Positions 21,968-43,652 of a DNA stretch of 64,000 nt are shown in pieces; positions within the stretch are counted from its first letter, which is position 1; every line of letters starts with the position of its first letter. A model generated the notes under the pieces. That model ran no database searches and was not told where the DNA came from. It saw nothing but the letters and a program-made list of their open reading frames with translations. Source of the DNA: Halostella pelagica (GTDB lineage: Archaea; Halobacteriota; Halobacteria; Halobacteriales; Natronoarchaeaceae); the NCBI GenBank assembly GCA_005954745.1, contig CP040678.1, positions 992,001-1,056,000 of the forward strand. The letters are read 5' to 3'. The position numbers were made by a program, and so were the translations under genes.

Positions 21968-22103
21968 GTTTGGCTGTACGCGAATCCCAGTGGAAACCAC
22001 TCCCTCCTTCGTCCATCGAACGAAAGCAAAATCAGGCCCGTTCGACAGATGATCACCACGCCGTCCGGTGATTATCTCACACCAAATGTATGGGCGCTGC
22101 AGG
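21968..22103 (+). repeat. Copy B of recombinase-associated module
   Basis: Elements in order: GTTTGGCTGTACGCGAA (21968-21984), the imperfect palindrome TTCGTCCATCGAACGAA (22008-22024), AGCAAAATC, and TGGGCGCTGCAGG (22091-22103). The recombinase ATG lies 112 bp further on. The palindrome has arms TTCGT/ACGAA around a 7-bp spacer, the geometry of a tyrosine-recombinase core site, but it could instead be an operator. The remaining leader to 22214 shows weaker similarity to copy C (GATTTCGnnnGCGTT). Confidence 0.75.
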
Positions 22104-22214
22104 CTCAAAGCCAATAAACAGCCCGTAGAAACCCTCTCGTTCGGGTTTCCGAACACGGGGATTTCGCCGCGTTCAGAATCGGCGTCGACGCAGCATCGGT
22201 TCGCGACTGCAACC

Positions 22215-23228
22215 ATGAGTCTCGAACCACTCGACCCGGAGACCGGCCTCGAGATGTATCTCCGGGACAAGGAGGCCGAGCTCGCAGCGAGTTCGGTCAA
22301 GTCGCACAGGTACCGACTCAAGCACTTCCTGCGCTGGTGTGACAAGGAGGACATCGACAACCTCAATGACCTCACCGGCCGCAAGATACAGCAGTACCGC
22401 CTCTGGCGGCGCGACGACGGCGACCTCTCCATCGCCAGCGAAAAGACCCAGATGGACACGCTGCGCGTGTTCATCCGCTGGGCAGAGTCCGTCGACGCGG
22501 TCGAGCAGGACCTCTCGACGAAGGTCCGCTCGCCCTCGATGACCCCTGAGCAGAACACCCGCGACGAGATGCTCGACACTGAGGAAGCCGAAGATGTCCT
22601 CGAGTATCTCATCAAATACCAGTACGCCTCCTGCCGGCATGTCACGGTCGCGCTGATGTGGCACACGATGATGCGAGTGAGCAGCGTCCACGCGCTCGAC
22701 GTCGACGACTACCATCGTGACGAGCAGTACATCGAGGTACGACACCGTCCTCAGACGGACACCCCGATCAAGAACAAGAAGGACGGTGAGCGTCTAGTGG
22801 CGCTTTCGGACGACATCTGCATGCTGCTTGACGACTGGCTCGAAGACCAGCGACCGAACGTCACCGATGACTACGGGCGTGAGCCCCTCGTCGCGACAAC
22901 TCAGGGACGAGCGAACAAGACTACGCTTCGGAAGTACGTCTATCAGGCAACGCGGCCGTGCTTCCGCGGTGCCGACTGCCCTGAAGAGCGTGACCCAGAA
23001 GAGTGCGACGCCGCCATCAAGGATCAGCAAGCGTTCAGGTGTCCCGCAAACGTCAGCCCGCACGCCATCCGTCGAGGCAGCATCACGCACTCGCTCAACA
23101 GCGACCTCCCGGACAACGTCGTGAGTGACCGGGCGAACGTGAGCCCCGCGGTCATCGAACAGCACTACGACCGGCGCACCGAGAAAGAGAAGATGGAACA
23201 GCGCCGCGACTACCTGGATCGGCTCTAA
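22215..23228 (+). CDS. Tyrosine recombinase/integrase with Cys-rich insert
   Basis: A 337-aa site-specific recombinase. An N-terminal SAM-like core-binding domain (residues ~10-105, 'SVKSHRYRLKHFLRWC') precedes the catalytic domain: first Arg R154 (MMRVSSVHAL), HxxR at H283/R286 and nucleophile Y318 in EQHYDRRT. Four cysteines, C249, C255, C264 and C276, lie in an insert just before HxxR and look like a zinc site. About two thirds identical by eye to the recombinase at 43653. Start at MSLEPLD, shared by both. It presumably integrates or excises the element that begins at the module just upstream. Confidence 0.92.
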   Translation: MSLEPLDPETGLEMYLRDKEAELAASSVKSHRYRLKHFLRWCDKEDIDNLNDLTGRKIQQYRLWRRDDGDLSIASEKTQMDTLRVFIRWAESVDAVEQDLSTKVRSPSMTPEQNTRDEMLDTEEAEDVLEYLIKYQYASCRHVTVALMWHTMMRVSSVHALDVDDYHRDEQYIEVRHRPQTDTPIKNKKDGERLVALSDDICMLLDDWLEDQRPNVTDDYGREPLVATTQGRANKTTLRKYVYQATRPCFRGADCPEERDPEECDAAIKDQQAFRCPANVSPHAIRRGSITHSLNSDLPDNVVSDRANVSPAVIEQHYDRRTEKEKMEQRRDYLDRL

Positions 23229-23960: not shown

Positions 23961-25277
23961 CTACGCAGGAGTGCTGTCTCCAAGAGCCAGTTCTCGCCGG
24001 TCGACACTGATGTTCCCATTGGATCCGATTCGCACTCGATTGTACCCTGGCAAGTGATTATCGAAATACATACTAATCGGAATCGTCGGTCCAGCACATG
24101 CGACCGTCACTCCATCAACAGACGTCTGCCACTTACCATCGAACGGGGGCCTGTGTTCGTGGCCGAGGAGTATGAGATCGAGCGACTGTCCCTGTTGTTC
24201 GGCGACTTTGACGATTGCCGAAATTGGCAAGTCTCGAATGGGCTCATGCAGACACAAAATATTTGTTCCACGGGTCTGGCCCACGTCGAACTTGAGGTCA
24301 CTAGGTGACCATCCATCCAGTGTATACCCTTCTTGAATCTCCACGAAGCCGATGTCGGCCGCGTCAACGCCGAACAGCGTGACTATACTCTCGTTTAGAT
24401 GGGCAGGAGACGTCGCAGAATGATTGACCGCTCCCGACTCGGTCAATGACTTCAGAGCACCTACTGCATCGACCGCGAAGGGGATTTCTCCGCCATTTGC
24501 AAGTCGATCGTGATCGCCGAGTATGAAGTGGAATGGAATCCCACTTTCAGCGAGAGAATCAATTGCTGAGAGTGATTTCCCAAGTATATCTTGTTTGACA
24601 TCATGATCGAAGAGGTCACCAGTATGTACTACAGCATCAACATTTTCATCGACAGCCTGCTGCAATACTGTCCGAAACGCGCGAAGGCTATCGGCCCTAT
24701 CGACCCATTTGGTATTCCCACCACCGCCTGGCTTCTTCCGGTTTTGATAGCCTAAATGAGTATCACTGATGTGAAAGAGTGTTAGCGATTGTTGAGGCAG
24801 GGTGAACTCTTGCAGCCGGTCGTAATCGGGATTGAGCCCACCACTTATTGGCCAAATATGGACGCGCTCGTCGGTATCCGGGTGGCAAGGTAGTCGGAAA
24901 GCTTCGTCGCGCTCAATAATTCCAAGCGCCTCGAGCGGTTTTCGTTCAGAAGGTGTGAGTCCCTCAGTAGCGATGGTGGGTAACCCATCACCGAATGCCT
25001 TCCTGTATTCCTCCATCGTGAATGAGTTTCGGGCGGACGTTGCCTTCCCGAATTCGGCACGTTTGTCACCGATTAGGTCCCTAAAAATGTGAAGTATTGA
25101 CTCTGTTTCTCCGGTGATCGCTTCATTTGCTTCAGCCAATCGCGAAACAAGCAAATGATACTCTGTGAGTGCTTGGTATGTATCTGCGATTTTATTGGGT
25201 TTGATCGGCTGGCCGTCTGTCACTATCCACTCATTAATAGTGCGGTACTTAACAACACCGAACAGCACGACGAACAA
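23961..25277 (-). CDS. Mre11/SbcD-like metallophosphoesterase with helical N-domain
   Basis: A 438-aa protein. The calcineurin-like phosphoesterase domain starts at ~165: HISDTHLG (D172, H174), VVHTGDLFD (D221), ILGDHDR (254-257, GDHD where GNHD is usual), CLHEP and LLGHEHRP. The ~160-residue N-terminus is helical/charged and matches no domain I know. Mre11/SbcD enzymes are Mn2+-dependent DNA nucleases; a DNA substrate is suggested by neighbours. The start is doubtful: the first codon used is TTG, and a good TATA box (TTATTTATAATAA, ~25325-25337) lies 50 nt upstream, so the true N-terminus may be longer or damaged by a frameshift. Confidence 0.8.
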   Translation of the reverse strand: MFVVLFGVVKYRTINEWIVTDGQPIKPNKIADTYQALTEYHLLVSRLAEANEAITGETESILHIFRDLIGDKRAEFGKATSARNSFTMEEYRKAFGDGLPTIATEGLTPSERKPLEALGIIERDEAFRLPCHPDTDERVHIWPISGGLNPDYDRLQEFTLPQQSLTLFHISDTHLGYQNRKKPGGGGNTKWVDRADSLRAFRTVLQQAVDENVDAVVHTGDLFDHDVKQDILGKSLSAIDSLAESGIPFHFILGDHDRLANGGEIPFAVDAVGALKSLTESGAVNHSATSPAHLNESIVTLFGVDAADIGFVEIQEGYTLDGWSPSDLKFDVGQTRGTNILCLHEPIRDLPISAIVKVAEQQGQSLDLILLGHEHRPPFDGKWQTSVDGVTVACAGPTIPISMYFDNHLPGYNRVRIGSNGNISVDRRELALGDSTPA

Positions 25278-25491
25278 TCTCGCAATTGAAGTTGAGTCAT
25301 GTGGTCATGGTCTACTATCTCCATTTATTATAAATAACAATCCTACCTCGAACCGCTGCACCCACTCGATGATGAGCGCGTGAAGGTCTCATCATCCAAG
25401 AAAGTATGAAATAAGACTAGTGAGGAATTACTCGCTCAAGCTTGCTGACGACACGGGACCTGAAAACTCGCCAACTTCAATTGAAGGAGGA

Positions 25492-26415
25492 TTATTGCTC
25501 TTCTTGGTTTTTAGAGTGCATGAGCATCTCACTAAGCATTGACTCTGTTCGCTGATTGCCATCAAGATGGTCAAATACCTCTTCAAGGGCTACGAAATTG
25601 ATGGCGTCTGGTACAGAGTCAGGTTGGCTATCACTCGGAGCAAAAAGGTAGAGGTGATCTGAACGATCTTGATACTTGGTCAGACGCTCAATCCGATCCT
25701 TGACGTTGGAGCTTCCACCCCCGGTCATTTCGGCTATGAGAACCGGTCCATGGTTTGGACCGATATGGCCAATGACATCCACGTCCTTCTGCTCCCCTCC
25801 TAGGGTTGATGTCCGACGGAACGAGGGGAACATCGATCGGAGATACTCTTCTGCGCAGACCTCAACCTGAGTGGGCGTCAAACTGGAGGCAACGTAGGGA
25901 ATAGGCTCGCCACGATATGCTGCTTCAACGATCTCTTCATCAATTTGATTCCAATTGCAAGCCGACCAATGCGGTGGGTGTAAGTCGGTATCAAACAACG
26001 GTGGGGCATCGGTTGGAGACACCTCAATAGTCGTAGTCTCATCGAATTTCACCCCTTTGAATATCCACTTGTATTCATCCGCATCGATGTCAGCTGTCCC
26101 GTACGGTTTGATCTCAATATAATCCTGAAGCGCAGAGTCCGTCGCTGGTATAATACAGACGCTTTCGGCTTTGCCAATGGTGATTCGACTGAGCGGATTG
26201 TAAAAGGTGACCGTGAACTGGTCGTTTTCAACTATCTCGCTGAGCTTTCTGATTTCTCTTTGAGCTTTTGACGTCTTGTCGTCATAGTCGGTAGGATCGG
26301 CTGACGCGATATTCTCCCAGTGCAGCATCCCGTAGCCCCGGTCGATTGCCTGTTCATTGTAGTGCTTTCTGGAGACTGGACCACTTGCATGGTTAATCCA
26401 TGCTGGCTTGCTCAT
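25492..26415 (-). CDS. Restriction-endonuclease-like protein (PD-(D/E)XK type)
   Basis: A 307-aa protein of unknown family. The C-terminal third contains 'LTPTQVEVCAEEYLRSMFP' followed by 'KDVDVIGHIGPNHGPVLIAEMTGGGSS', a helix-then-D..(E)xT arrangement typical of PD-(D/E)XK nucleases, here with Thr where Lys is usual. The N-terminal ~190 residues are unassigned. Start at 26415 (MSKPAWINH). It is transcribed towards the Mre11-like gene and divergently from the AddB-like gene, whose promoter adjoins. Confidence 0.6.
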   Translation of the reverse strand: MSKPAWINHASGPVSRKHYNEQAIDRGYGMLHWENIASADPTDYDDKTSKAQREIRKLSEIVENDQFTVTFYNPLSRITIGKAESVCIIPATDSALQDYIEIKPYGTADIDADEYKWIFKGVKFDETTTIEVSPTDAPPLFDTDLHPPHWSACNWNQIDEEIVEAAYRGEPIPYVASSLTPTQVEVCAEEYLRSMFPSFRRTSTLGGEQKDVDVIGHIGPNHGPVLIAEMTGGGSSNVKDRIERLTKYQDRSDHLYLFAPSDSQPDSVPDAINFVALEEVFDHLDGNQRTESMLSEMLMHSKNQEEQ

Positions 26416-26563
26416 GGGACTCTTGACAGATAGACAGACAATAAGCATTGTGAGTGTCACATGAACGACTCCTATCAGAATAATTTTACATCTTCGAATA
26501 TCTCAGCAGAGTCGATGTCTCTACCACTGAACCTTTATTAGTCGACGGTTACCTTTTCCTGTC

Positions 26564-29149
26564 GTGTCATTTCCCCGGGCCAAACCGATCGATGACCTCT
26601 ACGAGGAGGTCGCCGGATACGATCTCGCCGTGGTGCCCGACGCGCCGCTGGCCAGCGCATTGAACCGCCGTATCGACAGGCCACATCTCGGCTCGTTCGC
26701 GATCACGCCGCGCCGTCTTGCTGCGGGCCGCCGGGAAGAAGCCGAGGACCGTATCGCCTTCCTCGAACTCGTCGAGCAGACCGACTTGGACTGGAAGCGC
26801 GGCGCTTACGCAATCGGGAACATCCTCCAGTGCTGGGAACACCACGGCCGTCTCGAAGCTATTCTCGACTACGACGCCTACGTCGACGACACCACACGCC
26901 AAGCTGTCGAGTACATCGCCGACCTCGAGACGACATCGCGGCGACTCACTGAGTATCGCATCGAAGACGATCAGGACGTCGCAGTCGTCGGCGTCGACCA
27001 ACTGACCCAGCTGGAGCGCTCGATCCTCCCCGACGACTACGATACGTACGACACGTTCGACGACCGGGGGTTCGACCGACCCCCGTTCCACATCTTCGAC
27101 TCCTCGACAGCGATCGTCGACACCGTCGTCGACGCCGTTACCGAGGAGAACGCCGACGACGTTGCTGTCGTACTCGACCAGGGGAGTGAATTCTCTGCAC
27201 TCATCGAGTCTGCCTTCGAGGCTGACGACATCCCGTTCTACGGTGGACCCGGGTTCATCGACCATCCCGACCACCGCACGTTCGTCCAGTTGCTTCGTGC
27301 AGCATACGGCGGCACCGATACTTGCGTCGGCGAGATTCGGCCACTCCTCTCCCGACTCGGCGTCTCGCTGGACGTTGAACACGACGAGAAACGGCTGTAC
27401 GAACTCGACGACCAGGAACTGGACTGGGTCGTCGACTTCTGTGACCGCATCGAGAACCGGACCTTCGCCGAGGCACTCGACAGATTCGAGGACAGGGCGG
27501 ACCGCCGGCTCGATACGTTCCGTGAGGAGCTGGAGACGCTCGGCATCGCCGACACACGCGCGAGCGAGCGTGCCGTAGACCAGCTCGTGTTCTACCTCCA
27601 GAGCTACGAGGTCCCCGTCGACCGTGAGAACGAAGGGGTGTTGCTCGCCGACGCGAAGTCGGCCGCCTACGTCGACCGCCCGGTCGTCTTCTACCTAGGG
27701 CTCGACGAGGACTGGACGCACTCGGCGCCGAGGCGCCCGTGGGTCGATCAGGACGCCCAGTACACACGCAACATCCAGCAGTTCCAGCTCCTCCTCCAGA
27801 GCGGGGCGACCCAATACTACCTCGTCCAGGACGCGAAGGGCGGCTCGCCGGTGACACCGTGTCTCTACTTCGAAGAACTGCTCGACGAGGCGTTCGAACG
27901 ATTCAGCGACCTCGAATCGGAAACGCATACGCGACGGTCCGATCGTTCCGGTGACGGGTTCGCGAAGGAACCGGTCGATGCCACCCCCACCCAGGTATCG
28001 ACCATCAGCCAATCGAGTCTCGGCACATACGTCAACTCGCCCCGCGACCACTTCTTCGGCAGGCTCGTCGATGGTCCCGATAAGGACTACTTCAAGGAGG
28101 GGAACCTCTTCCACGACTTCGCCGAGTTCTACATCCACCACCCGGACTTCGTCGACGAGGACGTCCTCGACGACGTCGTGGAATACATCCTCGAAGAGAC
28201 GCGACCGTTCGTCCGCTCGGTCGACGAGGCGACCCGACGGACCAAGTACCGCGCTGGACTGGAGACCATCGTCGCGTTCTTCAATAAGAACAGGCCGGTC
28301 GACAGCGAGTTCCTCACCACCACGATCGACTGGGGTACGAACGTCTTCGCCGAGCGCTTCGACAAGCCCGTCGACTCCCCCATCACCGAACGGTGGTTCG
28401 AGAACGATGACCTGGGACTGAAGGGCAAGATCGACCTGATTCACTCCCGGTCGCGGCTGGTCGACCACAAGAGTGGCCGGTACAAGAGCGCTGGCCAAGT
28501 CGTCAAGAGTTCGGCGCTCGACCCGACGAGCGATTCGCCGAATTTCCAGGCACTGCTGTACCTCACCCACTGGCGCTCGCAGTACCCCGACCAGGAACTC
28601 GAGTTCACGTTCTTCCACTTCCTCGAGACGCTCGACGACGTCGTCGCCGGCGAGGTCGACCTTGATGACACGCTAACGGCGGTCTCGTACTACCCGATGC
28701 CGTTCGACGAGTACGCCCGCTCCAAGTCCTTTTTCAACGAGTTAGTCGAGGTCGGCTCGAACAACTGTCAGAAGACGCTCTCCCAAGTGGACTACGAGGA
28801 CTACGCTGCGGTCTTCGATGAGACGGCCATCCCGGACACAACTGACAGTGACGAACTCATCGACTCGGCGTTCGGCGAGACACTGACTGCTCAAATGAAA
28901 GACTGTGTTGGCGACTACAAGTACGTCGAGTCGGGCTGTAAGCAGGCGATGCGCCAGCTGACACGTGTTCGGGGGCAAGCCTACTTCGAGGATGACCTCG
29001 ACGCGTTCGAGGCATTCGTCGACGAGCGCCTCGAGGAGTTGAATCGGCGGCGCGCTGGGGAAGAGCGCTTCCCGGTTGACGGACTCGGCGGCGAGCCGAA
29101 CTACCGCTACGTGGACAACCGCGATCTCCTTCTGGAGGGTGACCGATGA
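26564..29149 (+). CDS. AddB-like PD-(D/E)XK nuclease/inactive helicase subunit
   Basis: An 861-aa protein. The C-terminal region carries a RecB-family nuclease: His in 'GNLFHDFAEFYI' (~517), Asp in 'LKGKIDLIHS' (~624) and 'LVDHKSG' (D634, K636). The N-terminal ~450 residues have helicase-like blocks without a Walker A ('VVLDQGSEFSALIESAFEADDIPFYGG', 'RPVVFYLGLDEDWTH'), as in AddB-type partners. The start is GTG 26564, ~30 nt after TTTATTAG. The stop overlaps the next gene by 4 nt. Together they would make an AddAB/RecBCD-like end-processing complex; a repair or anti-phage role follows from context only. Confidence 0.8.
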   Translation: MSFPRAKPIDDLYEEVAGYDLAVVPDAPLASALNRRIDRPHLGSFAITPRRLAAGRREEAEDRIAFLELVEQTDLDWKRGAYAIGNILQCWEHHGRLEAILDYDAYVDDTTRQAVEYIADLETTSRRLTEYRIEDDQDVAVVGVDQLTQLERSILPDDYDTYDTFDDRGFDRPPFHIFDSSTAIVDTVVDAVTEENADDVAVVLDQGSEFSALIESAFEADDIPFYGGPGFIDHPDHRTFVQLLRAAYGGTDTCVGEIRPLLSRLGVSLDVEHDEKRLYELDDQELDWVVDFCDRIENRTFAEALDRFEDRADRRLDTFREELETLGIADTRASERAVDQLVFYLQSYEVPVDRENEGVLLADAKSAAYVDRPVVFYLGLDEDWTHSAPRRPWVDQDAQYTRNIQQFQLLLQSGATQYYLVQDAKGGSPVTPCLYFEELLDEAFERFSDLESETHTRRSDRSGDGFAKEPVDATPTQVSTISQSSLGTYVNSPRDHFFGRLVDGPDKDYFKEGNLFHDFAEFYIHHPDFVDEDVLDDVVEYILEETRPFVRSVDEATRRTKYRAGLETIVAFFNKNRPVDSEFLTTTIDWGTNVFAERFDKPVDSPITERWFENDDLGLKGKIDLIHSRSRLVDHKSGRYKSAGQVVKSSALDPTSDSPNFQALLYLTHWRSQYPDQELEFTFFHFLETLDDVVAGEVDLDDTLTAVSYYPMPFDEYARSKSFFNELVEVGSNNCQKTLSQVDYEDYAAVFDETAIPDTTDSDELIDSAFGETLTAQMKDCVGDYKYVESGCKQAMRQLTRVRGQAYFEDDLDAFEAFVDERLEELNRRRAGEERFPVDGLGGEPNYRYVDNRDLLLEGDR

Positions 29150-32025
29150 CCGACCTCGAACCGAACGACCAGCAACAGGACCTCATCGACAGCACGGACG
29201 GCCTCTACCTCGTCGACGCCGGCGCCGGAACGGGCAAGACGTTCACCGTTACTCGCCGCTACGCGAACATTGTCTCACAAGCCGACGTCGACCCAGAGGA
29301 CGTCCTGCTCGTGACGTTCACGAACAACGCGGCCGCCGAGATGAAAGAGCGCATCGTCGGGAACTGCCACTACGGGATGCGTGAACTCGTGGACGCCCCC
29401 ATCCAGACGTTCCACTCGCTGTGCCACGATGTCCTCGAAGAGCACGGTCACGCCGCGCCAACCTATCTTGGCATCGACGACCGCATCACCGGATCGACGC
29501 GCATCATCGAGGACGACCTCGTCGAACAAGCGCTGTTCGGCGAGTTCATCGACCGATTCAGCGACGATCACCCCGAGTACGACGACGTCTTCCGCGCGCT
29601 CTCGAACCCCGACGAACTGCTCGACCTCATCAATCAGCTCGCAGCTAAAGGTGTGTTCCCCGATGCTGAGGGATGGTACAGGGACGGCGAGCAGCACCTC
29701 GACGGCGACTTCGCCGCGTTCAAACGGCAGTTCGACGACCTGAACGAACCGCGGAACGGCGGGAGCAAGCAGTCGCTGCTCCGGTCGAAGCTCGGCCGGT
29801 ACGGCCGGAACAAGACCTACCTACCTGCTGCGCCCGAGAAAGCGGAAATTCGCGGCAGCGGCAAGCAGGTTCCTGACGACCTCGCACGGCGAGTCTTCGA
29901 AGAAGAACGGGAGGAACTGAAGCAGTTCGTCCAGGACGTCTACCACGAGTACCTGCGGTTTGCGCTGCGGCGGAACTACCTGAACTTCGGGATGCTCCAG
30001 TTGTTCGCGTTCGTCCTCCTCTGCGAGAACCACGACCTGCGCGACGACGTCGCGTTCGAGTACGTGATGATCGACGAGTTCCAGGACTCCAGCGAGATCC
30101 AATTCAAACTCGCACTCCTACTCGCGGGCACGAACAACATCTGCGTCGTCGGCGACTGGAAACAGAGCATCTACAGCTTCCAATACGCCGACGTCGACAA
30201 CATCGTCGAGTTCGAAGACCGCCTCGATCGGTTCGTCGACCAGCTGAACAGCGACCACGAACGCATCTCGTTCCCGACGAGGCCCGTCACCACCATCGAA
30301 CTCGTCGAGAACTACCGCTCCACCCAGGAGATTCTCGACTTCTCGGAATACGGCCTGCGAGTCCCTGCGGCGAATCGAGACGACGTCGACGTCGAGGCGG
30401 TCGACGACCGCATCGTCTCGCTGGAGTCGAACGCGGACCACGAGCACACCACCATCGAGGCCATCCAGAGCGACGAAGAGCAGGAAGCGGTGCTGGCGAA
30501 GATCCAAGAGATCGTCGGCAACGAGGACTACCGCGTCGAGGACGAAGACGGTGCCCTCCGGGCGCCGGAGTACGGTGACATCGCTGTGCTAACGCGCACT
30601 CGTGACTTCGGGCGCGAGTTGCTGGGGACCGCCGAGGAGTACGGTTTGCCGATGGCGTACGAGGGTGGTATCGAGCTCTTCCGAACTGATCAGGCGAAGC
30701 TCTTGCTCGCCTGGCTGCGCATCCTCGAAGACGACATCGATCGCGGCTGGGCGGTCGTGCTTGAGCGAGCGGGCTATACGCTCGACGAGATCGACGAAAC
30801 CCTCGAGCGTGAGGCGTATCCCGAGCACATGGCGACGTTCCGCGAGGAACTGCGGTCGATGGAGACGCTCGGTGGCGTCGCACGGCGCGTGTTCGCCCGC
30901 TACGGCTACGACGGGCCGACCGCCGACGTGGTCCTCCACACGCTCCAGTCAGTCCACAACGCGACCACACAGACGCGCGGCGACCTCATCCGGTTCATCG
31001 AACGTGCCATCGAGGCCGGGAGTACCCACGAGGTGCACGCCGGTGCCGGCACGAACTCAGTGACGGTCCAGACGATTCACGCCACGAAGGGTCTCGAGTA
31101 CCCTATCGTCATCCTCGCGAACATGAACAGCGGCCGGTTCCCGCCAGGCGGTGGTGGTGGTGGAGTCATTAGCTACGACGACCCTGTCGGCTTGCGTCAA
31201 CGCAAGTTGTACTCGGAGGAAGCGCACGGGATGTCACACGTCTACGACAACTGGCAGGCCGACGTCCTCCAGAAGTGCCTGCCTCGCAACTACGACGAGG
31301 AACGCCGCCTCCTCTACGTCGCCATCACGCGCGCCGAGAGCCACGTCGTCTTCACCGCCGGCGAGGACCCGAACACCTTCATCGGCGAACTCCCGGTCGA
31401 GGTTCAGGCAGTCACTCCCAACGTCGCAGAGAGCACGCAAGAGGAGTCGGAACAGACTGCCCTCCAGGTGGAGATGCCGGTTCCAGAGGGCCCACGAGGT
31501 CGCACTCCGCATACGCTCATGCGCGACAACGTCTTCGAGGACGTCGAGGGCGGTAGGGGAACCGAATTCGGAACGCAGGTCCACGACTTCGCCGAGGCGT
31601 ACGCACTCGATGAGGGTGTCGAACCGCGGAATACTGACGAAGAGCACGTCAAGGAGTTCCTCAAAGAGCTTGACGGCGAGTTGTTAGTCGAAGAAGATGC
31701 GTACCTGCCGCTCACGGTTGATGGAGAACGTGTGACTATCTCGGGAGTCGTCGACCTAGTTCACTTGACGCCGGACCGTGTCGACATTGTCGACTACAAG
31801 ACCGACCGTGGCCGGCACGGTGAAGAAGAGTACCGCAAACAACTGAGCGTCTACTACCACGTCGCCAACGAAGTCTACCCGGCTCGAGAAATCACCACCA
31901 GCATCCTGTACACTGAGACGGGTGACCGTCGGAAAATCTCCCTACTCACGTTTGCCGAAATTCAGAATCTGGTCAGAGAAGCTAACATACCCATGAATAA
32001 CGCCAACGAGAGCGAAATCAAGTAG
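29146..32025 (+). CDS. AddA-like UvrD/Rep helicase-nuclease
   Basis: A 959-aa SF1 DNA helicase fused to a nuclease. Walker A is 'DAGAGTGKT' (24-32), motif Ia 'LVTFTNNAAAEMKER', Walker B 'VMIDEFQDSS', motif IV 'FRTDQAKLLLAWLR', motif V 'VQTIHATKGLEYPIVIL', motif VI 'RRLLYVAITRAESHVVF'. The C-terminus is a RecB-type nuclease: 'GTEFGTQVHDFAEAYA', 'ISGVVDLVHL' and 'VDIVDYKTDRG' (D883, K885). Translationally coupled (ATGA) to the AddB-like gene. It would unwind and degrade double-stranded DNA ends. Confidence 0.9.
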   Translation: MTDLEPNDQQQDLIDSTDGLYLVDAGAGTGKTFTVTRRYANIVSQADVDPEDVLLVTFTNNAAAEMKERIVGNCHYGMRELVDAPIQTFHSLCHDVLEEHGHAAPTYLGIDDRITGSTRIIEDDLVEQALFGEFIDRFSDDHPEYDDVFRALSNPDELLDLINQLAAKGVFPDAEGWYRDGEQHLDGDFAAFKRQFDDLNEPRNGGSKQSLLRSKLGRYGRNKTYLPAAPEKAEIRGSGKQVPDDLARRVFEEEREELKQFVQDVYHEYLRFALRRNYLNFGMLQLFAFVLLCENHDLRDDVAFEYVMIDEFQDSSEIQFKLALLLAGTNNICVVGDWKQSIYSFQYADVDNIVEFEDRLDRFVDQLNSDHERISFPTRPVTTIELVENYRSTQEILDFSEYGLRVPAANRDDVDVEAVDDRIVSLESNADHEHTTIEAIQSDEEQEAVLAKIQEIVGNEDYRVEDEDGALRAPEYGDIAVLTRTRDFGRELLGTAEEYGLPMAYEGGIELFRTDQAKLLLAWLRILEDDIDRGWAVVLERAGYTLDEIDETLEREAYPEHMATFREELRSMETLGGVARRVFARYGYDGPTADVVLHTLQSVHNATTQTRGDLIRFIERAIEAGSTHEVHAGAGTNSVTVQTIHATKGLEYPIVILANMNSGRFPPGGGGGGVISYDDPVGLRQRKLYSEEAHGMSHVYDNWQADVLQKCLPRNYDEERRLLYVAITRAESHVVFTAGEDPNTFIGELPVEVQAVTPNVAESTQEESEQTALQVEMPVPEGPRGRTPHTLMRDNVFEDVEGGRGTEFGTQVHDFAEAYALDEGVEPRNTDEEHVKEFLKELDGELLVEEDAYLPLTVDGERVTISGVVDLVHLTPDRVDIVDYKTDRGRHGEEEYRKQLSVYYHVANEVYPAREITTSILYTETGDRRKISLLTFAEIQNLVREANIPMNNANESEIK

Positions 32026-32195: not shown

Positions 32196-33278
32196 CTATT
32201 CTTTGGGCTGGAGTGGGCCTGGGAATTCGCCCGTTGGCTCTGTTTCGAAGACCGTCTGGTAGGTTTGTTCGAATACCTCGTTCAGGACGGTCAGAAGTTC
32301 GGGATTGTCGACGCAAAACTCTCGGACGGCGGCGTCTAGTTGCCCAAGATACGACCCGGCAAGGTTCTGCGGATCGAGTGGGTATTCCTTCGAACAGAGT
32401 GCGGAAGCACTGCTCAGGCGCGTCTTATCGACGCCGATCGGCTTGAGCGCGTCGTCGAGTCGGCCTGCATACTCAGTAGACGCCAAGGAAGTGAACTCAT
32501 CGTTGAATGACTGGCAGTCACCCTGAGGGGTCGTGTGGACGTGTCGCTGTGGAGGGAGACGCAGTCTGAACGTGAGGGTGCGATTTCGGAGGGAGTCAGT
32601 CGTCGGCGAGTGGCGGAAGTAGAGTCGAATCGTACTGTCACTATCGAGTGGATCCTGGTCCCAATATTCCGGAAGCAGAGCCTGCCACTTTGGTTTGCTG
32701 GAGGGGGAGGCGAGCCAGCGAGACTTCTCGAAGTCATAAGAGTCACCGAGTCTGGCCTCCCAATTGGACCGAAGGTACTTGCTGAGGTCCTCGAAATCGC
32801 TCTCGAACTGGCTGTTTGCCTTCTCAACTTGCTCGATGAGATCGCTGTACTCGAAATAGAGGTTGAGACGTTCGCTCAGCTGGGATTCGTCGAATGGTGA
32901 GTCCATGTTTTCGGTCTCCTTGAGTGATTGTATGAAATCGGTGAGTTGCACGACGCTCCGATGCGGATAGTCGAATAACGAGCCCTGAAGCTGGCGGTCA
33001 AACTCGTCGACGATGTCTTTCCAGAGCAACGATTGGAAGCTATCGTCGGTTGCGTCGTCAGCGCTATCGCGCTTGAGGTATGCGTAGTCGGTGTCAGTCA
33101 GACGATCGACGACTACCTCATCAGAGTCGAACCAACTGAAGTTCCACCGGTCGGCCTCGGCGTAGGCAGGTGTCTGACCTACACCTTCTGTGGCACCGAC
33201 CTTCAGTTCGAGAAAGACTGCCCATCGTGGGTGGTCGCTAAGTGCGCTACCCCCACAGATGACCAGGTCGATAGCCAC
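32196..33278 (-). CDS. PD-(D/E)XK nuclease-superfamily protein, probably N-terminally truncated
   Basis: A 360-aa protein beginning at a GTG. It opens directly with 'AIDLVI' and 'RWAVFLELKVGATEGVGQTPAYAE', the D...ExK core and the Q-rich helix of the PDDEXK superfamily. Homologous proteins usually have ~50-100 residues before this core, including a helix with a conserved Glu; those are absent. The rest (residues ~95-360) is unassigned and charged. Its first 76 nt overlap the zinc-ribbon ORF at 33203-33472, unusually long for this genome. Confidence 0.65.
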   Translation of the reverse strand: MAIDLVICGGSALSDHPRWAVFLELKVGATEGVGQTPAYAEADRWNFSWFDSDEVVVDRLTDTDYAYLKRDSADDATDDSFQSLLWKDIVDEFDRQLQGSLFDYPHRSVVQLTDFIQSLKETENMDSPFDESQLSERLNLYFEYSDLIEQVEKANSQFESDFEDLSKYLRSNWEARLGDSYDFEKSRWLASPSSKPKWQALLPEYWDQDPLDSDSTIRLYFRHSPTTDSLRNRTLTFRLRLPPQRHVHTTPQGDCQSFNDEFTSLASTEYAGRLDDALKPIGVDKTRLSSASALCSKEYPLDPQNLAGSYLGQLDAAVREFCVDNPELLTVLNEVFEQTYQTVFETEPTGEFPGPLQPKE

Positions 33279-33472
33279 TCCTCCTCCATCTCCTCCGGCT
33301 TTCTGAATGTTTGTTCACCGATTTCCCAGTCTAATGAGACAGAATTCCTATCCTCACGAATTACGAAACCACAGCTCTCACACACGCCTTCGAACGCTTC
33401 AATTGACTCGTCAACATCTTCGGTGTCACATACCGGGCAAGACTTGGCCTGCCCCTGTTCTGACTGCGTCAT
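33203..33472 (-). CDS. Zinc-ribbon small protein (TFIIB-like N-domain)
   Basis: An 89-aa protein. Two CxxC pairs, 'SCPVCDTEDVDE' and 'GVCESCGFVI', followed by an acidic 'REDRNSVSLDWE' segment, look like the N-terminal zinc ribbon of TFIIB-type proteins. The rest is short and ends abruptly. The ATG overlaps the stop of the Cas4-like gene (ATGA, 33469-33472). It may be a nucleic-acid-binding partner, or the truncated start of a longer TFB-like regulator. Confidence 0.55.
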   Translation of the reverse strand: MTQSEQGQAKSCPVCDTEDVDESIEAFEGVCESCGFVIREDRNSVSLDWEIGEQTFRKPEEMEEEWLSTWSSVGVAHLATTHDGQSFSN

Positions 33473-34560
33473 AGCTCCTCCCTTGCGAGTGATAAGCTGG
33501 AGATCTCGTCTCGGTCAGCACAGCGAGGACAAATCGGACTGCCCTCAGGTTCTGCCTCATCCCACCCGATATCCGACGAACAGCACTGGCAATACCAGTT
33601 GACCACACCGTATTCCTCAGCAAGCTCGGGGAATTTCTTTGCAAGAGTCGGTGTTAGCGATTCATTCGTGTTCCCTTCGAGGTATTCAACGACAGCGTCT
33701 CGGGGATATCCGCCATACCCCGCAAGCAATCCACTAGGTTCCATGTCACGATGGTTCGCATCGCCCTTCCCGCACCTCGTCCTGTATGAGCAGAACCGGC
33801 ACTCCCAGTCGTATTCGGGGTCTGCAGGTGGCAGTTCACCGTCGGCACGGTACTGAGTATGTTGTCCGGCCCAGTCCACTACTACTTCGTCCCAGAATTC
33901 GGCATCGAACTCAACGTGGAACGTTTTCAGCTCTAGGGATTCCCGGCCACCGTATACCAATACAGCATCGGTGAAGTCTCGATCAAATTTCTCCGACAAT
34001 CCCACGAGATAGGCATGTACCTGCGCGCGGTGGTGTCGGTTTGGTTCACTGATGTTGTCTACCGACGATTTTGTCTTCACCTCAGTTGGGAGAATTGGTG
34101 TTGCGGCAGAATCGACGATTACCGGGTCGGTCGCCCCCTTGATCCGCAACTCTCCTTCGTCGGACTGTACCGTGAAATCGATCCAAATCGAGTTCTGAAC
34201 GTACATGTCACTTTCTGTAACAGCACGATTCAGAAACGGGAACAGCAAGTCCTCCTCAAACCTCGTACCAAACCAGAAAATCCCACGAGGATCCGGCTGT
34301 TCTGCTGGGGCATTCTCCTGTCGGTACACGAGCTTTCGGTGGCACTGGAGGAGTTGGCTTGGACTATGACGTTCAGGAGCTGGGACGCTCCCGGGCCCGT
34401 TGAAATACGCTTGCCCTTCTTCAATGTTCTTCCGCCACTTCCGGTTCTGATACCACTCTCGAAACTGGTGTGGGGATAACCGGTCCACTAACTCTACGAT
34501 GCCACACGAGGATTGCTGGCCCTTTGGGGAAGTACCATCCGAAGTGGTATCGACCATCAC
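33469..34560 (-). CDS. Cas4-like Fe-S PD-(D/E)XK nuclease with C-terminal zinc ribbon
   Basis: A 363-aa protein. It has Cas4/AddB-type features: 'HSPSQLLQCHRKLVY' with C73, 'GTRFEEDLL' (E103), 'IKGATDPVIVD' (D145), 'LPTEVKTKSS' (E160, K162), QVHAYLVGL, and a cysteine triad 'ECRFCSYRTRC' (C254, C257, C263) that with C73 could hold a 4Fe-4S cluster. A separate C-terminal zinc ribbon (C324/C327, C344/C347) is extra. Cas4 proteins are 5'-3' exonucleases in CRISPR adaptation; solo forms occur in archaea and viruses. No cas1/cas2 is nearby, so CRISPR adaptation is not indicated. Confidence 0.82.
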   Translation of the reverse strand: MMVDTTSDGTSPKGQQSSCGIVELVDRLSPHQFREWYQNRKWRKNIEEGQAYFNGPGSVPAPERHSPSQLLQCHRKLVYRQENAPAEQPDPRGIFWFGTRFEEDLLFPFLNRAVTESDMYVQNSIWIDFTVQSDEGELRIKGATDPVIVDSAATPILPTEVKTKSSVDNISEPNRHHRAQVHAYLVGLSEKFDRDFTDAVLVYGGRESLELKTFHVEFDAEFWDEVVVDWAGQHTQYRADGELPPADPEYDWECRFCSYRTRCGKGDANHRDMEPSGLLAGYGGYPRDAVVEYLEGNTNESLTPTLAKKFPELAEEYGVVNWYCQCCSSDIGWDEAEPEGSPICPRCADRDEISSLSLAREEL

Positions 34561-36677: not shown

Positions 36678-39644
36678 TCAGCTGTCTGCTGGTTGACTAG
36701 CTTGGTAGACCTCACGCCGAAGGTGCTTCGTGATCGCCTTCTGGACTTCTTCGTTATCCATGAACTTGGCGAAAAGATCCTGATTCTGGTCCATCCGGTC
36801 GATGAACATCTCCGTGAGGGTGTCGTCGAACTCAAGCGCGAAGTTTTCCTTGCTGTTCACCTGTGCGGATCGGCGGAGATGGTCGTCTTCCAGTGCATCC
36901 TCCTTGATTTGGTCAAGGAAGAGTTGATCAGCCTCTGTGAAATCGGTACCCAGCTCTTTGTTGATTTTATCAACAATAGTTGAGAGTTCGACTTCTTCGT
37001 CCTCCTGGCTCCCGGTACCTGTCTCCGTGGGCGACGACACTCCGCCTCCTCCTGACCCAAGTTCGATACTACCCTCGTCCGATTTCTCTAACCGGTAGTA
37101 CTGGAGAGCGAGTTCATCGCTGAACTCAACCCGCGACTCTCTGGAATCCCGAGGCAATTCTTTGTATAGAAACCGCCCAAAGGTGTACAGTTTCTCCAGC
37201 GTGGTGTCCGCGTAGCTCACCACCTGTGACTGGAACTTGTACAGCCGGAGGAACGAACGGAGCTTGGAGCGGAACTGGTCTTGCGTCTCCTCATCAGCGA
37301 CCATAAACCGGTCGCGTGCCGGCTGAATGAAGCTATTCAGCTTCGCGTGTGCCTGCTCCGTGCCCTTGTTCTCCGGGCTGAAGAACGCCTCCGCAAACTG
37401 ATCCACCTCTTGCTGGGTGTGAATCTGGAAGGCGTTCAGTTCGGACTCCAGCTGGTAGATGTGCTGTGGGTCGGTAGTCTCCTCGATAGTCGTTTTTTCG
37501 TAGTACGGCTGGAACGCATCGTAGATGTCCTCTCGGTCATTCTCGAAATCAAGGACGAACGTGTCTTCTTTCCCAGGATGAGTACGATTCAAACGCGATA
37601 GCGTCTGCACTGCCTGAATCCCGGAGAGGTTCTTGTCCACGTACATCGTGTGGAGAAGCGGTTGGTCGAATCCGGTCTGGTACTTGTCGGCGACAACGAG
37701 AACCTGGTACTCCGGAGTATCGAACTTACTGGGGAGTTCGGACTCCTTGATCCCGTCGTTCATTCCCTGTTCGGTGTACTCGAACCCGTCGTCCTCTACG
37801 GTGCCGCTGAACGCCACGAGAGCACTCAAATCGTAATCGTTCGTTTCGATGTAGTCGTCAATCGCCTTCTTGTACCGGACGGCGTGCACCCGTGATGACG
37901 TAACGATCATCGCCTTCGCCTTCCCGCCGATCTTGTGCTGCGCGTGTTCGCGGAAGTGCTCAACGATGATCTCAACCTTCTGTGAGATATTATGAGGGTG
38001 TAGCTTCAGGAACTTCGAGACGGCCTTAACGGCCTTCTTTTGCGGAACTTGTGGGTCCTCTTCGATTGCTTTCGCAATCCCATAGAAGGTCTCGTAGGTC
38101 GTGTAGTTCTGCAAGACGTCAAGGATGAACCCCTCCTCGATAGCTTGGCGCATCGAGTAGACGTGGAACGGTTCCGGTTTGTCGCCGTCTTCAGGTACGG
38201 TTCCGAACGCCTCCAACGTCTTGCCTTTTGGTGTCGCTGTGAACGCAAAGAAGCTGAGGTTCTCTTGGTTGCCCCGCGTCTCTGCGCTCTTCACGATGAG
38301 GTCCTCGGCGTCATCGTCCTCATCGATATCCACGCCGGAGAGAATCTGCTTCATCTCGTGTGCCATCTCTCCAGATTGGCTACTGTGAGCCTCGTCAACG
38401 ACGACGGCGTAGTCCCGCTCAGGAAGTCGTTTCGCGTGTTCGATGACGTGCGGGAACGTCTGAAGCGTGGTGATGATAACCGGCTTGCCGGCATCAATAG
38501 CCTCCGCGAGCTCTTGGGACTTCGATCCCTGCTCGCCCTTGATTGCAGTGACGACACCCGTCTTGTGGTCGAGTTCGTATATCGTGTTTCGCAGCTGCTC
38601 GTCAAGGACTGTACGGTCAGTGACAACCACGACACCGTCGAAGACTGCTTCATCGGCGTCGTTATGCAGAGAGACGAGACGGTGGACGAGCCACGCGATA
38701 GACTTGCTTTTCCCACTCCCGGTTGAGTGCTGAACTAAGTAGTCCTCACCAGCACCGTGTTCTTGGGCCGAATCCACGAGTTCTCGGACGCACTCCAACT
38801 GGTGGTAGCGCGGGAAAATGATGGTCTCTTTTTCGTCCACCTTCACACCGTCTTTCCGGATCTCTTCAGTGTCGATGTGAATGAATCGCTGGAGGATTTC
38901 CATCCAGCTCTCCTTCTCCCAAACCTCCTCCCACAGGTAGGCGGTTCGATGGCTGTCCTCTCGTGGGGGATTCCCGGCTCCGCCATCGTGGCCCTTGTTG
39001 AACGGCAGGAAGTGAGTATCGTCGCCATCCAACTCGGTCGTGTACTCGACTTCGTCTTGATCAACGGCAAAGTGGACTAGAGCACCCCGTTTGAATTTCA
39101 GGGCAGGTTCGCCAGGATCTCGATCTGACTTGTACTGTTCCTTAGCATCGATGATGCTCTGGTCGGTGAACTTGTTCTTCAGCTCAGCGGTTGCCACAGG
39201 GATGCCGTTGACGCTGAGTGCAAGGTCGATGCTCTTCTTCGGGTCAGTCGTTGAGTAGTAGAACTGCTGAGTGACTCCCAGACGGTTTGCTTTGTATCGT
39301 TCTTGGACTTCTGGGTTCAGTCCGGTGTTCGGTTTGAACGCCGCGAGGTTAATCGTCGTCCCCGTTGTCCGCAGGCCGTGGCGAAGAACCTCCAGTGAAC
39401 CACGTCCCTCCATTGCACTCGTGAGGTCCTGCAGGAAGCGCTTCCGCGCATTACCCTTGTAGGCGGTTTCCAGCTTCTCCCACTTCTCCGGCTGCGTTTC
39501 TTTGACGAAGGACACGACGACGTCGGGAAAGATACCACGTTCCCGGTCGAACTCTTCGGACGGCAGGTCCTCGTATCCATCGTGATTCACAAGATGTGAC
39601 GCGATGAAGTCCTCAAAGCTCTCTTCGTCGTGAATCTTACTCAT
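36678..39644 (-). CDS. hsdR: Type I restriction enzyme R subunit
   Basis: A 988-aa motor/endonuclease subunit. N-terminal nuclease: 'VNGIPVATAELKNKFT' (ELKN). Helicase: Walker A 'QHSTGSGKSKSIAWL', DEAH box 'VVVDEAHSSQSG', 'FFAFTATPKGKTLE' and 'VQTLSRLNRTHPGKEDTFVLDF'. It translocates DNA and cuts unmethylated targets with HsdM/HsdS. The start overlaps the hsdS stop by 4 nt. Complete length. Confidence 0.95.
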   Translation of the reverse strand: MSKIHDEESFEDFIASHLVNHDGYEDLPSEEFDRERGIFPDVVVSFVKETQPEKWEKLETAYKGNARKRFLQDLTSAMEGRGSLEVLRHGLRTTGTTINLAAFKPNTGLNPEVQERYKANRLGVTQQFYYSTTDPKKSIDLALSVNGIPVATAELKNKFTDQSIIDAKEQYKSDRDPGEPALKFKRGALVHFAVDQDEVEYTTELDGDDTHFLPFNKGHDGGAGNPPREDSHRTAYLWEEVWEKESWMEILQRFIHIDTEEIRKDGVKVDEKETIIFPRYHQLECVRELVDSAQEHGAGEDYLVQHSTGSGKSKSIAWLVHRLVSLHNDADEAVFDGVVVVTDRTVLDEQLRNTIYELDHKTGVVTAIKGEQGSKSQELAEAIDAGKPVIITTLQTFPHVIEHAKRLPERDYAVVVDEAHSSQSGEMAHEMKQILSGVDIDEDDDAEDLIVKSAETRGNQENLSFFAFTATPKGKTLEAFGTVPEDGDKPEPFHVYSMRQAIEEGFILDVLQNYTTYETFYGIAKAIEEDPQVPQKKAVKAVSKFLKLHPHNISQKVEIIVEHFREHAQHKIGGKAKAMIVTSSRVHAVRYKKAIDDYIETNDYDLSALVAFSGTVEDDGFEYTEQGMNDGIKESELPSKFDTPEYQVLVVADKYQTGFDQPLLHTMYVDKNLSGIQAVQTLSRLNRTHPGKEDTFVLDFENDREDIYDAFQPYYEKTTIEETTDPQHIYQLESELNAFQIHTQQEVDQFAEAFFSPENKGTEQAHAKLNSFIQPARDRFMVADEETQDQFRSKLRSFLRLYKFQSQVVSYADTTLEKLYTFGRFLYKELPRDSRESRVEFSDELALQYYRLEKSDEGSIELGSGGGGVSSPTETGTGSQEDEEVELSTIVDKINKELGTDFTEADQLFLDQIKEDALEDDHLRRSAQVNSKENFALEFDDTLTEMFIDRMDQNQDLFAKFMDNEEVQKAITKHLRREVYQASQPADS

Positions 39645-41011
39645 GCTATACTATACCGGGGCTTGTCGATATTTTGAACACCCTCAACATCAATCTCACC
39701 CGTGACAACCGCTCTTGTCAAGGTTTGTTGTTCTTCTTCAAGACGATCGACACTCCGCTTAACCTCGTCCTTAACCTCACTAATCTTCTCATTGATTTCG
39801 GAGAGGTAGCTAGCTATCTCTTCTTGTTCATCTTCCGGCGGAACTGGAAGGAGCCCCCTTCGGAGGTCAAACAGGTTGACACCCTCAACCGTTGCACCAC
39901 GTCTGTTAACTTCCATTTGCTTGAAAAATGGTTCCGAACGTAGAGCGTACAATAACCACTCCGTGTTAATGTCCTCACGTGGGGAGATTCTGGCTGTATC
40001 TTGAGTTAGGTTTGCCCCTTCCAACTCCGAGGGTACCTGAACCACCCGACCTACACTCCCCCTGATCTCATAAACTAGTTCTCCTTCACGAAGCCTTGAC
40101 CTCTCGTATTTTTGGGCAATCTCTGGGGTCGTCTTAGAGAGAAGTTCGGGATCTAACTTCTCTGGTTCACACTGCCCTCCTTTGATGTATGGAACCCCCT
40201 CATCCTGATCAGGCCCTGGTTGAACGATTCCATAGACAATGGGGACGTGCTTTTTTCGCAACCTCTTAAGCCGCATAATATCCCAATGCTCTGGCACTTC
40301 GCTAAACCAGTCATGTCCGGTACTAACCGTTTTGGTGTCAGATTGGATTCCCCTTGTGACGGCAGCGGTTATTTCTGCTTGTAGCTTTTCGTCTAATCTG
40401 TCAACAAGAGTTTTCTTATCATCAAGGATTATTTCCGTTTCAGATAGATGTTTATTCAGGTACCCCACAATTCTCTCCTGCTCAGGAACTGGTGGTAACG
40501 GCATCTCAAGAGAACGAATGTCAGGCATATAGATTGTTTGGTGAGTAGACCCTTGCATTAGCCTTGAGAATTCTTGCTCCATTGAACGAAAGACGTAGAC
40601 CAAGTATTCTGGAAGAACATCATCTCCGCATACCCAGTTTGCAAAGTCCTGGGACGTAGCCATCTCTTGTCCCATGATCCCAGCAAAGCCAACAGAAGCT
40701 GTTCGGGATAAAAAGACAGTCCCCTCAGGAAGTAGACGAGCACCGGAATTTGCCAGTCCTAATTCACTGATCTCATTCTCAGTATTATTGAGGTAGAGTT
40801 TATGACTATCTCTGAAATTCTTTATATCTGATGTAGTGACCCAAGGAATATTGCAATCTTCCCAGTACTCTTCCTCAGAGCGGCTAGGTGTATGACCTGA
40901 TTCAAGTCTTGCTACGAATCTGATCTTCACAGTATTCCAATGTGATGGGATTTGGCCAATCCAGTCTACCCCAGACTCAACCAAATCTTCACTCTTGTTG
41001 TATTCCATCAT
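39641..41011 (-). CDS. hsdS: Type I restriction-modification specificity subunit S
   Basis: A 456-aa DNA-recognition subunit with two target-recognition domains. Each half opens with the classic pattern, 'VDWIGQIPSHWNTVKIRFVARLE' and 'HDWFSEVPEHWDIMRLKRLRKKH', and closes with 'PPVPEQERIVGYLNKHLSETE' and 'VPPEDEQEEIASYLSEINEKI' plus helical connector repeats. It overlaps hsdM by 4 nt. GC is visibly lower here than in hsdM, as often seen for exchanged specificity genes. Confidence 0.95.
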   Translation of the reverse strand: MMEYNKSEDLVESGVDWIGQIPSHWNTVKIRFVARLESGHTPSRSEEEYWEDCNIPWVTTSDIKNFRDSHKLYLNNTENEISELGLANSGARLLPEGTVFLSRTASVGFAGIMGQEMATSQDFANWVCGDDVLPEYLVYVFRSMEQEFSRLMQGSTHQTIYMPDIRSLEMPLPPVPEQERIVGYLNKHLSETEIILDDKKTLVDRLDEKLQAEITAAVTRGIQSDTKTVSTGHDWFSEVPEHWDIMRLKRLRKKHVPIVYGIVQPGPDQDEGVPYIKGGQCEPEKLDPELLSKTTPEIAQKYERSRLREGELVYEIRGSVGRVVQVPSELEGANLTQDTARISPREDINTEWLLYALRSEPFFKQMEVNRRGATVEGVNLFDLRRGLLPVPPEDEQEEIASYLSEINEKISEVKDEVKRSVDRLEEEQQTLTRAVVTGEIDVEGVQNIDKPRYSIA

Positions 41012-43380: not shown

Positions 43381-43535
43381 GTTTAGATGTACGCGAACCG
43401 CCGGACGGAACCGGCCTCATTCGGAATCGTTCGACCATCGAACGAAATCAAATTCGGCAGCCAAAGTCACTTTATAAGTGACCCACCGCCGTCTGTCGGA
43501 TTTGGATCGTTCGGAAAACGAGTGGGCGCTGCAGG
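43381..43535 (+). repeat. Copy C of recombinase-associated module
   Basis: Elements in order: GTTTAGATGTACGCGAA (43381-43397; 15 of 17 bases as in copy B), TTCGACCATCGAACGAA (43430-43446; here extended to a perfect CGTTCGA-cca-TCGAACG palindrome), ATCAAATTC, and TGGGCGCTGCAGG (43523-43535). Distance from ATCG to TGGG is 86 bp, one helical turn more than in copies A and B. The recombinase ATG follows 118 bp later. The 43296-43652 interval contains no gene. Confidence 0.75.
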
Positions 43536-43652
43536 CCTTGGTCACGCGGCGTGACAACCCTTCCTTTTAGCGATTTCGGGCGTTGTAGCCGTTGGTTTGG
43601 AATGGGTAGTAACCGGGACTCGTGGGGTTCGCTTGACCAGAGAAAACCAACT

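What the first reader, a model, noticed from the sequence alone, without database searches (positions are those of the whole stretch)
23961..32025. Mre11-like phosphoesterase, REase-like protein and AddB-like/AddA-like pair as a compact DNA-end-processing locus on a mobile element
Haloarchaea normally use Mre11-Rad50/HerA-NurA; an AddAB-like helicase-nuclease pair next to a Mre11/SbcD-like enzyme with a new helical N-domain and a PD-(D/E)XK protein is unusual. All are directly behind a recombinase, two convergent and two coupled, which suggests a horizontally moving anti-phage or plasmid-degradation system. Domain calls rest on visible motifs; defence function is inference.
Basis: partly seen in the sequence, partly recalled or inferred. 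Interest (0 to 1): 0.64.

Follow-up and report, generated by a model that had tools for sequence, protein, structure and literature searches.

The report
Mobile AddAB-like DNA-end shredder in haloarchaea
Two overlapping genes that build a DNA-end unwinding-and-cutting machine, resembling one that bacteria use for repair, jump as a pair between salt-loving archaea and probably help destroy foreign DNA; the two other enzymes next to them belong to a different story.

Summary
All four genes exist, but they do not form one system. The AddB-like gene (26564-29149) and AddA-like gene (29146-32025) are a self-contained, uncharacterised AddAB-type helicase-nuclease. AddA has intact helicase and nuclease motifs. 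AddB has a dead helicase core plus a nuclease, and its predicted fold matches Bacillus AddB chains first. The pair is adjacent in 55/55 sampled loci and 79/80 named loci (the exception is a contig end). It occurs in 162/392 genomes and on at least 33 haloarchaeal plasmids. It moves horizontally: AddB is 84-92% identical to copies in other families but 52-64% within the genus, whereas RadA is about 79% and 92%. DNA homology starts at the addB promoter and stops at the addA end, so the moving unit is about 5.4 kb. The Mre11-like and REase-like genes accompany it in none of these loci. The Mre11-like protein is a distant relative of a phosphoesterase family encoded divergently from BREX in 15 of 18 cases. 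The REase-like protein is an independently distributed defence-island gene whose catalytic lysine is replaced. Best reading: a mobile AddAB-like module that degrades free DNA ends (viral or restricted DNA). Mobility is shown; defence is inferred. Chief rival: an accessory repair/recombination module.

The parts
26528..26563 (+). core promoter of addB-addA (BRE/TATA-like gaacctttattag about 27 nt before the GTG start; probably leaderless); left edge of the mobile unit
   Evidence: DNA homology with seven or more loci from other families begins at 26527-26530
26564..29149 (+). addB-like: degenerate UvrD-like helicase core without Walker A, plus C-terminal RecB-family PD-(D/E)XK nuclease (861 aa)
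   Evidence: PDDEXK_1 E=1.9e-11; alignment of 21 members; AlphaFold2 model pLDDT 78.6 whose five best PDB matches are AddB chains of B. subtilis AddAB, best E=1.6e-12
28433..28561 (+). AddB nuclease motifs D624...D634-x-K636...Q662-x3-Y666
   Evidence: invariant in 21 of 21 and in 46 of 46 members
29146..32025 (+). addA-like: active SF1A (UvrD/Rep) helicase plus C-terminal RecB-family nuclease (959 aa), overlapping addB by 4 nt
   Evidence: UvrD-helicase E=1.5e-53, UvrD_C 3.6e-30, PDDEXK_1 1.1e-8; NCBIfam AddA models hit but below cut-off; PDB profile match to AddA 3u44_A E=3.4e-35
29218..29241 (+). AddA Walker A motif (AGAGTGKT)
   Evidence: invariant over 21 members except one nearly invariant position
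31753..31854 (+). AddA nuclease motifs D870...D883-x-K885...Q899-x3-Y903
   Evidence: D870, D883, Q899, Y903 invariant, K885 at least 90%
23961..25223 (-). Mre11-like phosphoesterase with helical N-domain; NOT part of the AddAB module; distant relative of a BREX-adjacent family
   Evidence: Metallophos E=5.2e-15; one close relative in 391 other genomes; 27-29% identity over most of the length to the 438-aa BREX-adjacent family
25492..26415 (-). REase-like (PD-(D/E)XK superfamily-like) protein with E-M-T in place of E-x-K; NOT part of the AddAB module
   Evidence: 26/392 genomes, never beside AddAB elsewhere; alignment
32196..33278 (-). N-terminally truncated PDC-S26-like PD-(D/E)XK gene (lacks about 90 residues of 459), probably decayed; downstream neighbour, not part of the module
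   Evidence: tblastn with the intact homologue starts at its residue 91; PADLOC PDC-S26 hit of a homologue
22215..23228 (+). tyrosine recombinase (XerC/D-like), copy 1, left edge of the defence island
   Evidence: Phage_integrase E=1.5e-8; 75% nt repeat of the copy at 43653-44663

Best explanation
The functional unit is the two-gene, promoter-addB-addA module (26528-32025). It encodes an AddAB-type heterodimer: AddA is the ATP-driven 3'-5' motor that also cuts one strand with its C-terminal nuclease; AddB is a motor-dead UvrD-like scaffold that holds or scans the DNA and cuts the other strand with its own nuclease. It would load on free double-strand ends (linear viral genomes, plasmids, or DNA cut by neighbouring restriction systems) and unwind and degrade them; any braking signal (a Chi-like host sequence) is unknown. 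The pair spreads by horizontal transfer as a stand-alone module, often through plasmids and defence islands, beside the nearly universal haloarchaeal Mre11-type proteins, so it is most likely an accessory DNA-degradation (defence) module. Shown: gene pair, intact active sites, fold of AddB, patchiness, horizontal transfer, sharp unit edges, plasmid carriage. Inferred: dimer, biochemical activity, substrate, defence role. The Mre11-like and REase-like neighbours are separate island genes.
For: AddB-AddA adjacent, same strand and mostly overlapping by 4 or 8 nt in 55/55 loci, AddA present in 79/80 named loci; AddA and AddB identity matrices correlate r=0.96. AddB fold matches AddB chains first although its sequence profile finds nothing in the PDB. 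Catalytic residues invariant. Patchy: 162/392 genomes, 56/86 genera; at least ten genomes carry two full-length copies; remnants in G006 and G039. Transfer: AddB 84-92% to other families versus 52-64% in genus while RadA is about 79% and 92%; AddB versus RadA correlation 0.04, nearest neighbour in the same family 13/40 versus 38/40. Block edges 26528 and 31915-31975. 34 plasmid records, all listed organisms haloarchaeal, no phages, no viral contigs. Neighbours hit 216 PADLOC models against 14 in a control of arbitrary stretches from the same kind of genomes. Precedent: deleting addAB in Thermus thermophilus raises plasmid transformation about 100-fold (PMC9751324).
Against: Bacterial AddAB is a repair/recombination enzyme, so mobility alone does not prove defence. 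Neighbours also include metabolic and regulatory genes, and the PADLOC contrast counts redundant models, not genes. No neighbour family recurs in more than 6 of 55 loci. PADLOC has no model for the pair. No experiment exists.
Confidence: 0.55

Rival explanations
1. The pair is a mobile accessory DNA-repair/recombination module (AddAB in its bacterial role): it resects breaks for RadA and helps plasmids or the host, without a dedicated anti-virus role.
For: Architecture equals bacterial repair AddAB; frequent plasmid carriage could serve plasmid upkeep; many neighbours are not defence genes.
Against: Absent from 59% of haloarchaeal genomes and from some same-genus species although nearly all carry Mre11-domain proteins; recent transfers between families; remnants and duplicate divergent copies are typical of defence genes.
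Confidence: 0.33
2. One reading: Mre11-like, REase-like and AddAB form one four-gene end-processing defence system.
For: They are contiguous in this window, and REase-like/addB share a divergent intergenic region.
Against: 0 of 55 and 0 of 79 AddAB loci carry the REase-like gene or a close Mre11-like relative; REase-like copies in genomes that also have AddAB (G019, G031) are on other contigs; DNA homology of the mobile block stops at the addB promoter.
Confidence: 0.03
3. Other grouping: pd1-like, REase-like and Mre11-like minus-strand genes are remnants of one older module (the order pd1-REase-Mre11 is also seen in G046, L118) into which AddAB was inserted here.
For: Same order and strand in L118 and in the window.
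Against: The REase and Mre11 members in L118 belong to different subfamilies (about 28% and 35% identity in the best segments); only one such locus seen; in other genomes each gene occurs without the others.
Confidence: 0.15

Closest known systems
Bacterial AddAB (B. subtilis, PDB 3u44/4cej)
   Same: Two adjacent genes; AddA = SF1A helicase + RecB-family nuclease; AddB = inactive helicase core + RecB-family nuclease; five best structural matches
   Different: Sequence-divergent (AddA below NCBIfam cut-off, AddB no PDB profile hit); AddB 861 aa versus about 1150; no iron-sulphur cysteine set; addB-addA as a horizontally mobile module; haloarchaea only in the searches made
RecBCD
   Same: DNA-end processing helicase-nuclease; RecC is a next-best structural match to AddB
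   Different: Two nucleases and one motor here; RecC has no active nuclease (general knowledge); no RecD gene next to the pair
UvrD-Cas4 fusion proteins (PMC5704561)
   Same: UvrD helicase fused to a pfam12705 nuclease, in bacteria and mesophilic archaea, in defence contexts
   Different: No AddB partner is described there; whether this AddA belongs to that branch was not tested
Gabija (GajA-GajB)
   Same: UvrD-type helicase + nuclease pair; PADLOC GajB models hit the AddA motor
   Different: Partner is an AddB-type PD-(D/E)XK protein, not an OLD/TOPRIM nuclease; AddA carries its own nuclease
SbcCD / Mre11-Rad50
   Same: The Mre11-like protein has the phosphoesterase core
   Different: No Rad50 partner beside it, helical N-domain added, GNH motif reads GDH; below all Mre11 equivalog cut-offs

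Membership tests
AddAB | two subunits encoded side by side and co-inherited | tested here: met
   55/55 loci and 79/80 named loci; AddA/AddB identity correlation 0.96
AddAB | AddA: complete SF1A helicase motifs plus C-terminal RecB-family nuclease | tested here: met
AddAB | AddB: helicase-like core without motor role plus C-terminal RecB-family nuclease, AddB fold | tested here: met
   model best matches AddB chains; catalytic residues invariant
AddAB | AddB iron-sulphur cluster (four cysteines around the nuclease; general knowledge) | tested here: not met
   no conserved four-cysteine set; the position before PRD is S or C
AddAB | score above curated AddA/AddB family cut-offs | tested here: not met
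   AddA 173.8 versus 707.65 bits; AddB no AddB model hit
AddAB | stable heterodimer with ATP-dependent dsDNA exonuclease, Chi regulation | not testable with these tools
   needs biochemistry
Gabija | GajA (OLD/TOPRIM ATPase-nuclease) next to GajB | tested here: not met
   AddA has GajB-like motor hits but AddB and the other neighbours have no GajA hit
Mre11-Rad50/SbcCD (for the Mre11-like gene) | Rad50/SbcC-type SMC ATPase partner | tested here: not met
   no Rad50-type ATPase among the neighbours scanned
BREX accessory phosphoesterase family (for the Mre11-like gene) | encoded divergently from brxA-brxB-brxC | tested here: not met
   true for 14 of 17 retrieved 438-aa relatives plus G000's own copy, but not for the window copy or its close relative in G155 (L070)
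Known PADLOC defence system (AddAB pair) | specific PADLOC model for both genes | tested here: not met
   AddB only a weak Cas4d hit; AddA generic GajB/RTasHel motor hits

The most novel reading that the evidence does not exclude
A dedicated, horizontally mobile archaeal AddAB that works as a stand-alone innate immune nuclease: it destroys free ends of viral/plasmid DNA unless braked by a haloarchaeal Chi-like sequence, an archaeal counterpart of RecBCD self/non-self discrimination that has become a defence cassette.
Probability: 0.35. Interest if true: 0.72.

Novelty: new variant of a known kind. Interest (0 to 1): 0.52.

Why it matters
AddAB/RecBCD machines are usually treated as bacterial core repair enzymes; archaea are assigned Mre11-Rad50/HerA-NurA. 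Here an AddAB-type machine is carried by about 40% of sampled haloarchaeal species as a 5.4-kb mobile unit, often on plasmids and in defence islands, annotated only as 'PD-(D/E)XK nuclease family protein' and 'ATP-dependent DNA helicase'. If it is defensive, it is a widespread archaeal system missing from the PADLOC release used here, testable in genetically tractable Haloferax and Natrinema; it also gives a clean case for asking whether AddAB-type enzymes need Chi to spare the host.

Tried and rejected
Four-gene synteny: tested and rejected. AddAB as a core repair locus: rejected by distribution and RadA comparison. Association of AddAB with one fixed neighbour: none found (165 families among 218 neighbours). 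Pfam tally of neighbours gave only a weak signal, so PADLOC with a control of arbitrary stretches was used. Viral origin: no relative in IMG/VR or phage records for AddB, nor in IMG/VR for Mre11-like and REase-like. Literature searches found no description of AddAB in haloarchaea (one apparent hit was a surname). The AddB/RadA comparison sampled many loci chosen by similarity to this AddB, which biases it towards incongruence; the same-genus contrast from the relatives search does not have that bias.
Full report
What is there. The window is part of a haloarchaeal chromosome (G000:C1:992001-1056000). The four ORFs are real: Mre11-like 23961-25277(-), REase-like 25492-26460(-), AddB-like 26564-29149(+), AddA-like 29146-32025(+). 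The first two are in tandem and divergent from the second two; 'convergent' in the finding is wrong. A DUF7342 gene separates them from recombinase 1. The cluster goes on with a truncated PD-(D/E)XK gene, a Cas4-like gene, a NucS-like gene and hsdR/S/M up to recombinase 2; the two recombinases are 75% identical repeats.

AddAB identity. AddA carries a UvrD helicase and a C-terminal RecB-family nuclease with conserved Walker A, DE box and nuclease residues over 21 relatives. AddB has invariant nuclease residues D624, D634, K636, Q662, Y666 but no Walker A and no conserved four-cysteine set. Its sequence profile finds nothing in the PDB, yet an AlphaFold2 model from 46 sequences (pLDDT 78.6, pTM 0.48) matches the five AddB chains of B. 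subtilis AddAB first (best E=1.6e-12, alignments of more than 1000 columns), then RecC, AdnA and UvrD. TM-scores are low (0.35-0.37), as expected if domain placement in the model is uncertain, so this supports the domain order rather than the exact quaternary shape. AddA matches AddA 3u44 (E=3.4e-35), but PcrA/UvrD score better, and NCBIfam AddA cut-offs are not reached. I therefore call it AddAB-like in mechanism and do not file it as an AddAB equivalog.

The unit. AddB and AddA are neighbours on the same strand in all 55 loci examined, mostly overlapping by 4 or 8 nt; of 80 named loci only one, cut by a contig end, lacks AddA. Their identity matrices correlate at 0.96. DNA alignments to the closest relatives, which are in other families (82-87% identity), start at 26527-26530 and end at 31915-31975 (one at 32279). 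The left edge is a TATA-like promoter (gaacctttattag) directly in front of the GTG start. Nothing else is shared, so the moving unit is promoter-addB-addA, about 5.4 kb.

Distribution and transfer. AddB is found in 162 of 392 haloarchaeal-class genomes and 56 of 86 genera, with about ten genomes holding two full-length copies; deleted remnants occur in G006 and G039. The closest relatives are in other families (Haloplanus ruber 92%, XH8 89%, Halomicrobium katesii 86%, Halopenitus persicus 86%), whereas same-genus AddBs are 52-64%. RadA shows the opposite: 92% within the genus, about 79% outside. Over 40 genomes the AddB-RadA correlation is 0.04, and the nearest neighbour lies in the same family for 13 (AddB) versus 38 (RadA); part of this sample was chosen by AddB similarity, which favours incongruence. 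Thirty-four plasmid records carry it, all listed ones haloarchaeal; no phage record and no viral contig does. Records annotate the genes only as PD-(D/E)XK nuclease family protein and ATP-dependent DNA helicase; neighbours on plasmids include N-6 methylases, a cytosine methyltransferase, integrases and IS elements.

Context. Neighbours are very varied (165 families among 218 genes). Scanned against PADLOC at E<=1e-8, 141 neighbours hit 216 models, including BrxH, DrmA, DrmD, DpdE, PbeA, ZorD and HmaA, against 14 models (mostly generic ATPases) for 141 control genes. Pfam shows transposases and ResIII helicases but also metabolic genes. This is a moderate pull towards defence islands, not exclusive residence.

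The other two genes. The Mre11-like protein has a phosphoesterase core (Metallophos E=5.2e-15; Mre11 PDB hits limited to residues 161-270), an extra N-domain and a GDH in place of GNH. One close relative exists among 391 other genomes (G155, 57%), also near a recombinase of this kind. Next come 17 retrieved copies of a family of about 438 aa, alignable over most of its length at 27-29% to the window protein and its G155 relative. Fourteen of these, and the copy in this same genome about 16 kb beyond the window, are divergent from an unknown gene of about 215 aa followed by brxA (where fetched in full: brxA-brxB-brxC-pglX). So its kin are BREX-associated, not AddAB-associated. The REase-like protein belongs to a family in 26 of 392 genomes; many members have E-V-K, this branch E/Q-x-T, so catalysis is doubtful. 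It too is never beside AddAB elsewhere.

Mechanism and verdict. By architecture the pair should load on DNA ends, unwind with AddA, cut one strand with each nuclease, and use AddB as scaffold or scanner. Loss of addAB in Thermus raises transformation about 100-fold (PMC9751324), showing that such an enzyme can act as a barrier to incoming DNA. Given the mobility, patchiness and duplicated copies, I favour an accessory DNA-degradation (defence) role (0.55), with a mobile repair module as the main rival (0.33). I found no earlier description of this haloarchaeal pair in the papers searched; the nearest is the UvrD-Cas4 fusion class (PMC5704561).

Noticed in passing
L071:15616-16848 (G000:C1, beyond window end) and L042-L058: A Mre11-like phosphoesterase family of about 438 aa with helical N-domain is encoded divergently from an unknown gene of about 215 aa plus brxA-brxB-brxC-pglX in 15 of 18 copies: a candidate haloarchaeal BREX accessory component.
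   Followed up: partly
L075:8978-9625: Conserved protein of about 215 aa immediately before brxA in these BREX loci; no PADLOC hit.
   Followed up: no
window 32196-33580: PDC-S26-like PD-(D/E)XK gene lacks its first 90 residues; directly upstream is a short ORF fragment resembling the zinc-ribbon start of a TFB, suggesting a recombination junction. A C-terminal remnant of the same gene follows addA in Halomicrobium katesii.
   Followed up: partly
window 22005-23228 and 43427-44663: Two paralogous tyrosine recombinases (75% nt identity), each with a similar 29-bp element (86%) about 200 bp upstream, flank a 21-kb defence island.
   Followed up: partly
window 33469-34560: Solo Cas4-like nuclease in the island (PADLOC Cas4 E=2.5e-13).
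   Followed up: no
window 36678-42996: Complete type I restriction-modification operon hsdM-hsdS-hsdR.
   Followed up: no
window 54233-55860: AbiEi/AbiEii-type toxin-antitoxin pair.
   Followed up: no
L117, L118, L123-L126: REase-like family members, several with canonical E-V-K, sit in haloarchaeal defence islands, once beside BREX; the window member has no Pfam/NCBIfam/PADLOC match.
   Followed up: partly
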